A program made the translations under genes and the position numbers. The notes below the pieces were generated by a model. That model was given only the letters and a program-made list of their open reading frames with translations. It did no database searches and had not been told where the DNA came from. Shown here piece by piece: positions 6,634 through 36,293 of a stretch of 42,703 bases of DNA. Where the stretch lies: positions 1-42,703 of the forward strand of contig CAJBDJ010000054.1 in assembly GCA_903951825.1 (NCBI GenBank), written 5' to 3'. Positions within the stretch are counted from its first letter, which is position 1. Each line of letters opens with the position of its first letter. Source of the stretch: an uncultured Pseudomonadota bacterium (GTDB taxonomy: Bacteria > Pseudomonadota > Gammaproteobacteria > Burkholderiales > Rhodocyclaceae).

Positions 6634-6741
6634 ACCCCGGCGGCGTAGTAGAAAGACATATTTTGTGCGGTGCACCAATTGTCGATAAAGTACGTTATAC
6701 TGCGTCGCGTACACTTCAAAAACTCTCCAAGGAAAACCGTC

Positions 6742-7257
6742 ATGTCCATCAATCCTGAACAATTCGCCGCCGCCAACAAGGCAACCGTTGATTCCCTGCT
6801 TGCTGTCGCCAACACGGCTCTGGCTTCTGCCGAGCGGATCGCCTCTCTCAATTTGAATACCGCGCGCGCCGCCCTCGAAGATGCCACCTCCGGCGTTCAG
6901 TCGGTGATTTCCGCCAAAGATCCACAAGCGGCGCTCGCAGCTCAATCTTCTCTGGCCAAACCGGCAGTTGAAAAAGCGGTTGCCTACTCACGCTCGGTCT
7001 ATGAAATCACCTCTGAAGCCCAGAAGGATCTGGCCAAGATGGTTGAAGCTCAATTCGGTGATTTCCAGAAGAATGTTGCTGGCATGGTCGCCATGGCCTC
7101 CAAATCTGCCCCGGCTGGCTCCGAGGGCGCGGTTGCTGCAATTCAGAGTGCAATCGCTGCCGCCAACTCGGCTTTTGGTAACATGAATGCCGTTGCCAAG
7201 CAGTTCGCTGAAACGGCGCAAGCCAACATCGCGGCAATGAGCAAGCAATCCAAGTAA
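6742..7257 (+). CDS. phaP: Phasin, polyhydroxyalkanoate granule protein
   Basis: A 171-residue phasin, an amphipathic protein that coats polyhydroxyalkanoate granules and controls their size and number. The N-terminus MSINPEQFAAANKATVDSLL leads into the phasin_2 pattern, and the whole chain is Ala-rich helix with no membrane segment or Cys. AAGGA lies nine bases before the ATG. A TATACT at 6696-6701 could be a -10 element, but I see no matching -35. A near-perfect terminator follows at 7281, so it is likely transcribed alone. The family is clear; which phasin paralogue it is cannot be told here. Confidence 0.92.
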   Translation: MSINPEQFAAANKATVDSLLAVANTALASAERIASLNLNTARAALEDATSGVQSVISAKDPQAALAAQSSLAKPAVEKAVAYSRSVYEITSEAQKDLAKMVEAQFGDFQKNVAGMVAMASKSAPAGSEGAVAAIQSAIAAANSAFGNMNAVAKQFAETAQANIAAMSKQSK

Positions 7258-7280: not shown

Positions 7281-7310
7281 AAGCCCCACACAATTTGTGG
7301 GGCTTTTTCT
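7281..7310 (+). terminator. Rho-independent terminator after phasin
   Basis: Ten-base perfect stem AAGCCCCACA (7281-7290) with TGTGGGGCTT (7296-7305), loop CAATT, followed by a T run. It begins 23 bases after the phasin stop. Confidence 0.92.
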
Positions 7311-7347
7311 TGAGCAGGGATTTTTTTGCATTTTTTGCAAAAGTATG

Positions 7348-7376
7348 TTGCGTCGCAGCATCAGCGTCGGCATAAT
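7348..7376 (+). promoter_or_regulatory. Putative sigma70 promoter of a candidate small RNA
   Basis: A -35 TTGCGT (7348-7353) is followed, at exactly 17 bases, by a -10 CATAAT (7371-7376). The 27 bases upstream (7321-7347) are a T/A-rich run that could serve as an UP element. It lies downstream of the phasin terminator and upstream of a second, otherwise orphan terminator. Confidence 0.5.
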
Positions 7377-7382
7377 AACGTT

Positions 7383-7439
7383 TGTCTCCTCCATCTCCTC
7401 CAAGATTTGGATTTAGCCCGCCTCGAGCGGGCTTTTTTT
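7383..7439 (+). ncRNA. Candidate CU-rich small RNA
   Basis: A predicted transcript of about 57 bases. It carries the unpaired tract TCTCCTCCATCTCCTCC (7385-7401), a small hairpin TCCAA-GAT-TTGGA (7399-7411) and ends in a terminator hairpin. The CU-rich tract contains two copies of CTCCTCC, complementary to Shine-Dalgarno GGAGG sequences. This architecture fits small RNAs that repress translation by pairing with ribosome binding sites, probably with Hfq, which is encoded in this window. It has its own promoter and terminator and no reading frame. Transcription has not been shown; it could instead be a trailing 3' UTR element of the phasin transcript. Confidence 0.45.
7415..7439 (+). terminator. 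Rho-independent terminator of the candidate small RNA
   Basis: Seven-base stem AGCCCGC (7415-7421) with GCGGGCT (7427-7433), loop CTCGA, then a run of seven Ts. No reading frame ends just before it, since the phasin already has its own terminator about 100 bases upstream. Confidence 0.88.
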
Positions 7440-7507
7440 CTTGGTTGAGTCACTGCAATGCTTGAATGGTGAAGTTGCTGCCCGCCAAGTCATAGAAAGG
7501 AATTCTG

Positions 7508-7756
7508 ATGCACACCACCAAGGTTCTCGAATACCTCAAGAAACATGGCCAACTGCTCGATTTTGATATTGCAGCGGCGACCAACATCTCGCTCGATGCC
7601 GTCAGAGCCTCGCTGACCGAACTCTCTGAGCGTGGCGACATTTCCCAGTGCAGTGTGACCAGTTACGTCAAAGGCAAGGCGGTCGAGGGGTTTCAATGTC
7701 GACTGTCCGGGTTTATTCCGCGTCCTGCGCCGGGCAGAAAGCCCGGCGTCAAATAA
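7508..7756 (+). CDS. Small winged-helix DNA-binding protein
   Basis: An 82-residue protein whose first 55 residues look like a winged helix-turn-helix: VLEYLKKHGQLLDFDIAAAT, NISLDAVRASLTELSERGDI and a beta-wing SQCSVTSYVKGKAVEGFQCR. The tail is short, basic and proline-rich (RPAPGRKPGVK). AAGGA lies eight bases before the ATG. It is followed 29 bases later by a small acidic helical gene in the same direction. The fold assignment rests on pattern, not on a named family; targets are unknown. Confidence 0.75.
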   Translation: MHTTKVLEYLKKHGQLLDFDIAAATNISLDAVRASLTELSERGDISQCSVTSYVKGKAVEGFQCRLSGFIPRPAPGRKPGVK

Positions 7757-36056: not shown

Positions 36057-36293
36057 ATGAGCAACAAAGGGCAACTCCTGCAAGACCCCTTCCTCAACGC
36101 ACTTCGCCGCGAGCACGTTCCCGTTTCGATTTACCTGGTGAATGGGATCAAATTGCAGGGTCAGGTTGAGTCTTTTGACCAGTACGTCGTACTGCTGAAA
36201 AATACCGTCACTCAAATGGTCTACAAACACGCCATTTCAACCGTCGTGCCGGCACGTCCGGTCACGCTTCAGCAAGAGCAGGCAAGCGAATAA
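36057..36293 (+). CDS. hfq: RNA chaperone Hfq
   Basis: A 78-residue Sm-like protein forming hexamers that help small RNAs pair with mRNAs. Sm1 is [20 protein letters not shown] and Sm2 is [12 protein letters not shown]. The ATG at 36057 is chosen: GGAG stands ten bases upstream, and an in-frame ATG at 36042 lacks one. A strong hairpin lies between it and hflX. It is the natural partner for the candidate CU-rich RNA at 7383. Confidence 0.97.

What the first reader, a model, noticed from the sequence alone, without database searches (positions are those of the whole stretch)
7321..7439. Candidate Hfq-dependent CU-rich small RNA with anti-Shine-Dalgarno tract
Within 119 bases after the phasin terminator lie, in order, a T/A-rich stretch, a -35 TTGCGT, a 17-base spacer, a -10 CATAAT, a tract with two CTCCTCC copies, a small hairpin and a strong terminator. 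No reading frame is present. Two terminators only 100 bases apart are hard to explain unless something is transcribed between them. The CU tract is complementary to GGAGG ribosome binding sites, so it could silence several mRNAs at once. I know of related logic in CU-rich small RNAs of other proteobacteria, but not of this one.
Basis: partly seen in the sequence, partly recalled or inferred. Interest (0 to 1): 0.7.

Follow-up and report, generated by a model that had tools for sequence, protein, structure and literature searches.

The report
Carbon-storage-linked small RNA beside phasin
The sequence is a member of a known family of small regulatory RNAs that block ribosome-binding sites, and its promoter appears to carry the switch that senses stored bioplastic, which would explain when bacteria use it to slow down carbon uptake.

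Summary
Window 7383-7440 (+) is a short CU-rich RNA gene with its own promoter and terminator. It is not a new RNA: it matches Rfam RF02278, "Betaproteobacteria toxic small RNA" (56.3 bits, cut-off 50). Published relatives are the Burkholderia double-hairpin RNAs and Bordetella S17.

What I did not find in print is the wiring. The -35 box lies inside a palindrome, 7345-7361, that fits the operator of PhaR, the repressor that PHB granules sequester. Of 40 fetched genus loci of this type, 39 carry it within 2 mismatches, centred 28-31 nt before the RNA. Across the order, a strict core lies upstream of 57 of 80 examined RF02278 loci in phaR-bearing genomes and 0 of 28 in genomes without a phaR match. 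Of the 40 genus loci, 22 sit directly downstream of a phasin gene. The RNA's 5' end is perfectly complementary to start regions of solute-binding-protein and AMP-binding-enzyme genes.

Best reading: PHB accumulation removes PhaR, the RNA is made, and it represses carbon import with Hfq. The RNA's family is shown; PhaR control, Hfq use and the targets are inferred.

The parts
6662..6678 (+). PhaR-like operator TTTGTGCGGTGCACCAA upstream of the phasin gene
   Evidence: Read; no mismatch to the R. eutropha PhaR motif YTKNTGCRNYGCANMAR (motif), compared by hand
6742..7257 (+). phasin gene (Phasin_2)
   Evidence: PF09361, E 5.3e-27
7282..7312 (+). intrinsic terminator of phasin
   Evidence: 9-bp stem, -15.9 kcal/mol, z -5.4; not listed by the scan
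7345..7361 (+). PhaR-like operator ATGTTGCGTCGCAGCAT covering the -35 box of the sRNA
   Evidence: 2 mismatches (outermost positions) to the PhaR motif; within 2 mismatches at the same place in 39 of 40 class A loci, this one included
7348..7353 (+). -35 box TTGCGT
   Evidence: lies inside the operator
7371..7376 (+). -10 box CATAAT
   Evidence: CATAAT at this exact place in 15 of 40 class A loci; a hexamer with 4-5 of 6 TATAAT letters ending 4-9 nt before the RNA in 40 of 40 (no background control)
7383..7440 (+). sRNA of Rfam family RF02278 (predicted transcript)
   Evidence: 56.3 bits, cut-off 50, model 1-64 of 64
7383..7393 (+). conserved unpaired 5' seed TGTCTCCTCCA (anti-Shine-Dalgarno 1)
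   Evidence: near-invariant in 175 unique sRNAs; nt 1-7 all unpaired in 162 of 175 folds
7390..7411 (+). hairpin 1, loop side holding the second CTCCTCC
   Evidence: two-hairpin fold in 171 of 175 unique relatives
7415..7439 (+). intrinsic terminator (hairpin 2 and T run)
36078..36263 (+). hfq (Hfq domain)
   Evidence: PF17209, 102.9 bits

Best explanation
A 56-58 nt RNA of family RF02278 is transcribed from 7383 to the terminator at about 7439. Its -35 box lies in an operator for PhaR. While little PHB is present, free PhaR blocks the promoter, as it does at phasin promoters. When PHB granules form, PhaR is drawn onto them and both phasin and the sRNA are made. With Hfq, the unpaired 5' end UGUCUCCUCCA (perhaps helped by the second CTCCTCC) pairs with GGAGGAGACA-type ribosome-binding sites and represses a set of mRNAs, mainly solute-binding and other transport proteins and AMP-binding (acyl-CoA-synthetase-like) enzymes: a brake on carbon intake when the store is filling. 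Shown here by sequence: family membership, operator conservation, its co-occurrence with phaR, phasin linkage, excess of seed matches before start codons. Inferred: transcription, PhaR binding, repression, the PHB signal, Hfq dependence, target repression.
For: RF02278 match, second copy in the genome, 188 of 199 family genomes and 58 of 60 genus genomes with a match at E 0.001 or better. PhaR motif within 2 mismatches and 120 nt upstream of 39 of 40 class A and 59 of 62 class B loci, against 5.6% and 3.3% of dinucleotide shuffles. Strict core TGCRNYGCA within 150 nt: 57 of 80 loci of phaR-bearing genomes, 0 of 28 of genomes without a phaR match; 54 of 70 against 0 of 23 genomes; within-family losses agree in f4 and f9. 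Control, 150 nt downstream of the RNA: 2 of 102 (own family) and 8 of 108 (order). In this genome the motif also precedes two phasin genes and phaR itself. Phasin directly upstream of 22 of 40 class A loci. Seed complement TGGAGGAGACA 1-9 nt before ATG in 35 of 40 genus genomes, matches to the sRNA gene itself included, against 2 hits in all for the reversed pattern. Published relatives: ncS03, ncS05 and ncS27 up 4.3- to 8.0-fold in glucose medium; S17 co-precipitates with Hfq and represses BP2158 directly. PhaR represses the alphaproteobacterial sRNA MmgR (passages).
Against: No expression or binding data for this organism. 23 of 80 loci of phaR-bearing genomes lack the strict core, including L143 and L168 of two large f30 genomes, both f46 genomes and 5 of 10 f7 genomes. 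The window's own site and the second own copy (L001) each have 2 mismatches, and L001 lacks the strict core. The association test is not corrected for kinship. In B. cenocepacia these RNAs also rise in starvation medium (2.6- to 3.9-fold) and biofilm, and the long, processed ncS27 rises in glucose medium too, so PHB build-up is not the only possible signal. Duplex energies alone do not single out the proposed targets: other window start regions reach -23.9 kcal/mol. The two phasin mRNAs and phaR are poor predicted targets (-6.5, -9.8, -12.2 kcal/mol), so no MmgR-like action on phasin is supported.
Confidence: 0.7

Rival explanations
1. The palindrome is the operator of another regulator that shares PhaR's site and is lost together with it; the RNA then answers a different signal.
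For: Only a motif and co-occurrence link PhaR to the site; genomes without phaR will lack other genes too.
Against: The site fits the motif derived for R. eutropha PhaR, and in this genome it also lies before two phasin genes and phaR; phasin genes are known PhaR targets.
Confidence: 0.15
2. The RNA is a constitutive or growth-phase regulator; the palindrome is only a conserved promoter shape with TTGC as -35.
For: The -35 TTGC is part of the site; the S17 promoter works with sigma-A RNA polymerase alone in vitro; relatives also rise in starvation and biofilm.
Against: Symmetric arms are kept, dinucleotide shuffles rarely give them, and none of 28 loci of genomes without phaR has the core.
Confidence: 0.08
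3. The RNA is released from the 3' end of the phasin mRNA by processing or read-through.
For: It starts 126 nt after phasin, and S17 is processed from a longer RNA.
Against: A strong terminator separates them, a promoter with conserved spacing sits between, and 18 of 40 class A loci showed no phasin match.
Confidence: 0.04
4. A dead or unexpressed copy; the better-scoring copy on contig C26 does the work.
For: Lower bit score than the C26 copy (56.3 against 63.2).
Against: Promoter, seed and terminator are kept as in the genus relatives.
Confidence: 0.03

Closest known systems
Rfam RF02278 Betaproteobacteria toxic sRNA; B. cenocepacia double-hairpin RNAs ncS03, ncS05, ncS27, ncS62 (PMC5688073, PMC4603805)
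   Same: Same family by covariance model, two hairpins, unpaired CU-rich 5' end; carbon-compound transport and metabolism targets predicted there too; three of the four share an upstream motif
   Different: There no regulator is named ('yet unknown'); the word phasin does not occur in either main text; toxicity comes from overexpression and was not tested here
S17 of Bordetella pertussis (PMC11722255)
   Same: Closely similar 5' end, Hfq-bound, represses at ribosome-binding sites, transporters prominent. Order loci with S17-like neighbours have a PhaR-like site over or near the -35 box
   Different: S17 is cut by RNase E from a 190-nt precursor; the window copy appears to start directly at the seed. 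An unknown repressor is postulated for S17
MmgR of Sinorhizobium meliloti (Rfam RF00519)
   Same: Short sRNA repressed by PhaR (AniA) and tied to PHB storage (passages)
   Different: Not a member: 18 bits against a cut-off of 41; MmgR acts on phasin expression, here phasin is a poor predicted target
NmsRb (RcoF1) of Neisseria
   Same: Sibling sRNAs that act on metabolism (title of PMC5362039 in a search listing; the rest recalled)
   Different: 19.1 bits against a cut-off of 52

Membership tests
RF02278 Betaproteobacteria toxic sRNA | Score above the family's gathering cut-off over the full model | tested here: met
   56.3 bits, cut-off 50, positions 1-64 of 64
RF02278 Betaproteobacteria toxic sRNA | Two hairpins, the second a terminator, with an unpaired anti-SD 5' end | tested here: met
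   predicted fold
RF02278 Betaproteobacteria toxic sRNA | Growth inhibition when overexpressed in E. coli | not testable with these tools
   Only reported for relatives; S17 did not impair exponential growth
Hfq-dependent trans-acting sRNA | Hfq present and bound | tested here: inconclusive
   hfq is in the window; binding reported only for S17
PhaR regulon | PhaR operator motif at the promoter | tested here: met
   2 mismatches to the 17-letter motif, the limit in PMC12849132 being 3; 39 of 40 class A loci within 2
PhaR regulon | PhaR encoded in the genome, and operator absent where phaR is absent | tested here: met
   phaR in G000; 0 of 28 loci of genomes without a phaR match have the core
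PhaR regulon | Binding by PhaR and derepression by PHB | not testable with these tools
   needs EMSA and mutants
MmgR (RF00519) | Score above the gathering cut-off | tested here: not met
   18 bits, cut-off 41

The most novel reading that the evidence does not exclude
The RF02278 'toxic' RNAs of Burkholderiales are the RNA arm of the PhaR regulon: PHB granules, by titrating PhaR, switch on a global anti-Shine-Dalgarno RNA that closes carbon import. PhaR would be the unknown regulator of the short Burkholderia double-hairpin RNAs and the postulated unknown repressor of S17, and lineages without PhaR have rewired the same RNA to another promoter element (TATTAGA, in part a palindrome TATTAGA...TCTAATA).
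Probability: 0.6. Interest if true: 0.75.

Novelty: new variant of a known kind. Interest (0 to 1): 0.65.

Why it matters
Two papers leave the control of these RNAs open: PMC5688073 calls the regulator unknown, PMC11722255 postulates an unknown repressor. This gives both one named, testable candidate, and offers a reason for the reported rise in glucose medium. It would join carbon storage to carbon intake by one RNA in many PHB-forming bacteria, with use for bioplastic production, and parallels PhaR and MmgR in Sinorhizobium.

Tried and rejected
Rejected: a new RNA family (RF02278 fits); the 12 other Rfam hits, MmgR, NmsRb, RyhB, GcvB, SorX and Trp_leader among them (all well under their cut-offs); a hidden protein (no plus-strand ORF of 60 aa or more over the RNA; shorter frames were not listed); MmgR-like control of phasin (poor duplex); the consensus scan as evidence for or against the promoter. 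RNAalifold on a 175-sequence MAFFT alignment paired only 3 column pairs, because loops differ in length; I used single folds instead and made no covariation count. A search for the S17 promoter hexamers (loosened -10) with a 105-135 nt leader matched 3 of 399 genomes, one of them with a PhaR core (G341); no Bordetella record was examined by name.

Grouping and rows: classes A and B were assigned by me. The 40 loci L063-L102 were picked by score and length from the list before their upstreams were seen; L100 was then moved to class B on its sequence, and the window copy L002 added to class A. L092 counts as a miss. Of the 108 order loci, 28 came automatically and 80 were picked by me across families from the printed list, before their upstreams were seen; weaker matches were not printed. 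phaR presence was typed by hand from the table; genomes not printed there as positive count as negative. The script tallied 106 of the 107 matches (I left one out when typing); the 50 of 100 given here was recounted by hand, with 7 matches to sRNA genes removed; one site with two ATGs counts twice.

Full report
What is there. The interval holds what looks like a complete small RNA gene: terminator of phasin, promoter (TTGCGT, 17 nt, CATAAT), start point at 7383, two CTCCTCC copies, a small hairpin and a terminator. cmscan of the whole window gave one hit over a curated cut-off, exactly here: RF02278, Betaproteobacteria toxic small RNA, 7383-7440, 56.3 bits, cut-off 50. The genome has a second copy on contig C26, 63.2 bits. 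The family is common around it: 188 of 199 genomes of the same family and 58 of 60 of the same genus have a match at E 0.001 or better, against 0 of 14 control genomes; in the order 191 of 299. The genus is most likely Azonexus in the GTDB sense: contigs of the genus genomes G219 and G234 have the same lengths (157403 and 8269) as records titled Azonexus sp.; this is an inference.

What is known. I read passages of PMC4603805, PMC7011215, PMC10987360, PMC9049629, PMC6321483, PMC12849132 and PMC12542648; sections 6 and 8 and passages of PMC5688073; the abstract, results, discussion and passages of PMC11722255. Kimelman 2012, cited there as the source of the name, is not held. In Burkholderia cenocepacia four homologues, the double-hairpin RNAs, are expressed; three are very short and the fourth (ncS27) is longer and can be processed; three share an upstream motif. 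ncS03, ncS05 and ncS27 rise 8.0-, 6.9- and 4.3-fold in glucose medium, and also 2.6- to 3.9-fold in starvation medium; ncS27 overexpression slows growth; what regulates them is called unknown. S17 of Bordetella pertussis co-precipitates with Hfq, is cut from a longer RNA, represses BP2158 directly by pairing in its 5'UTR, and an unknown repressor is postulated.

Two promoter types. Laying upstream regions of the genus side by side showed two classes. In class A, the window type, the RNA starts right after a CATAAT-like box and the -35 box sits in a palindrome such as TTGTTGCGGTGCACAAT. In class B, the C26 type, a -10-like box lies, by my reading, about 45-60 nt upstream of the seed in the genus, so the RNA would have to be processed out, as S17 is.

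The palindrome fits the PhaR motif. The motif given for PhaR of R. eutropha is YTKNTGCRNYGCANMAR (PMC12849132). Within 120 nt upstream and with at most 2 mismatches it is found in 39 of 40 class A loci, in all 39 centred 28-31 nt before the RNA, and in 59 of 62 class B loci; dinucleotide shuffles give 5.6% and 3.3%. In this genome PhaR is encoded once. The motif also lies before the window phasin (6662-6678, by hand), 64 nt before a second phasin gene and, with 2 mismatches by my reading, about 40 nt before phaR. The shorter form TTGCRNYGCANMA occurs 37 times in the genome against 8 for the reversed control; many of these lie inside or near unrelated genes, so the motif alone does not prove a target.

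Test across the order. For 108 RF02278 loci outside the own family I compared the upstream with the presence of phaR (PF07879, 203 of 299 genomes). The strict core TGCRNYGCA within 150 nt is present in 57 of 80 loci of phaR-bearing genomes and in 0 of 28 of genomes without a phaR match (54 of 70 and 0 of 23 genomes; Fisher p about 1e-11 per genome, not corrected for kinship). Shuffles give 3.1% and 1.0%; the 150 nt downstream of the RNA give 8 of 108. In f4 and f9, each with a single phaR-less member here, that member lacks the core while 10 of 10 and 6 of 8 phaR-bearing genomes have it; in f42, 1 of 3 phaR-bearing and 0 of 6 phaR-less genomes have it. Against the reading, 23 loci of phaR-bearing genomes lack the core, among them both f46 genomes, 5 of 10 f7 genomes and L143 and L168 of f30. 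In the own family 91 of 102 loci have the core; the C26 copy is among the 11 that do not, and the downstream control there is 2 of 102.

Named organisms. Four (Anaerolineae, Haliea, Microbacterium, Terriglobus) are followed by no such RNA and look like chance; in a few others (Ralstonia L286, L292, Azoarcus L288) no clear -10 box follows the core. Five of the f4 loci (L144, L145, L148, L152, L186) have a COQ7-like gene on one side, and three of them (L144, L148, L152) a family-4 glycosyltransferase-like gene on the other, the neighbours reported for S17 (Pfam run on the COQ7 proteins of L145 and L152 and the glycosyltransferase of L152). L152 has TTGCAT, 17 nt, TACTAT, the hexamers and spacing reported for the S17 promoter, with the -35 inside TTCTTGCATCGCACAAA; its leader is shorter than that of S17. 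Bordetella itself was not examined.

Phasin linkage.

Structure and seed. Of 175 unique relatives, 171 fold into two hairpins and 162 leave nt 1-7 unpaired; the first 11 letters TGTCTCCTCCA are nearly invariant.

Targets. TGGAGGAGACA, the full complement, lies 1-9 nt before ATG in 35 of 40 genus genomes, matches to the sRNA gene itself included; the reversed pattern gave 2 hits in all. Relaxing two letters in 20 genomes gave 107 matches against 21 for the reversed control; without 7 matches to sRNA genes, 50 of 100 keep AC, the RNA's complement, AA following with 17 (recounted by hand). Of 30 loci fetched, one per genome, 21 start a gene-like frame; 8 are the sRNA gene read backwards (7 by coordinates, L390 by likeness) and 1 has 12 aa. 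By Pfam on representatives and by N-terminal likeness for the rest, the 21 are 7 Peripla_BP_6 solute-binding proteins, 6 DctP solute-binding proteins, 2 DUF4212 proteins (a symporter subunit, recalled), 3 chalcone-isomerase-like, 2 Fe-S proteins and 1 AMP-binding enzyme. Twenty further hand-picked loci gave mostly like products and one aldehyde dehydrogenase. In the own genome, GGAGGAGA 2-10 nt before ATG occurs 12 times (control 4): 4 sites start long frames, two Peripla_BP_6 proteins and two AMP-binding enzymes; 7 start frames under 50 aa; one (C49:74930) was not resolved. Orthologues recur, so these are not independent counts. Duplex energies are -21.5 to -23.2 kcal/mol for the four, but other window start regions reach -23.9, with a median of -13.7.

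Mechanism. PhaR is reported to repress phaP1 and to leave it when granules form (PMC12849132). With its operator over the -35 box, the sRNA should follow the same signal. The RNA would then block import and activation of carbon substrates. This fits the glucose-medium rise and the carbon targets predicted in Burkholderia, and has a parallel in PhaR repression of MmgR in S. meliloti (PMC12542648). The rise in starvation medium and the rise of ncS27 fit less well. In the listings I saw no paper linking PhaR to RF02278, and PhaR does not occur in the main texts of PMC5688073, PMC10987360 and PMC11722255. The library lacks most subscription papers; the NcS27 paper of 2019 was not read, and Fig. 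S3 of PMC5688073 could not be seen.

Verdict. The RNA is a known kind. Its phasin-linked, PhaR-operator form and the order-wide tie between operator and phaR appear to be new. I call it a new variant of a known kind; the RNA alone would be only a new member.

Noticed in passing
upstream of the sRNA in genomes without phaR, e.g. L208, L213, L224, L229, L240: Another shared promoter block: TATTAGA within 80 nt in 24 of 28 loci (3 of 80 in phaR-bearing genomes, all f42), and a full palindrome TATTAGA-n3-7-TCTAATA in 9 of 28 against 0 of 80. Another regulator may have replaced PhaR.
   Followed up: partly
class A loci, upstream of the PhaR-like site, e.g. L071, L075, L077: A second recurring block, by eye TTACA...GATACA; GATACA alone in 15 of 40 class A loci. 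The window copy has a T/A-rich stretch there instead.
   Followed up: partly
G044:C1 3305531-3308856, G167:C31 98270-101597, G261:C1 1646160-1646602, G428:C10 271947-272222, G515:C16 71072-71333: Tandem RF02278 copies with starts about 200-380 nt apart, in G044 and G167 as two pairs about 3 kb apart.
   Followed up: no
window 7508-7756: 82-aa protein with a weak winged-helix match (PF13412, below its cut-off) whose homologue follows the sRNA in many of the phasin-linked loci.
   Followed up: partly
G306, G261, G402, G473, G494, G534 (family f7): 6 to 9 RF02278 copies per genome.
   Followed up: no
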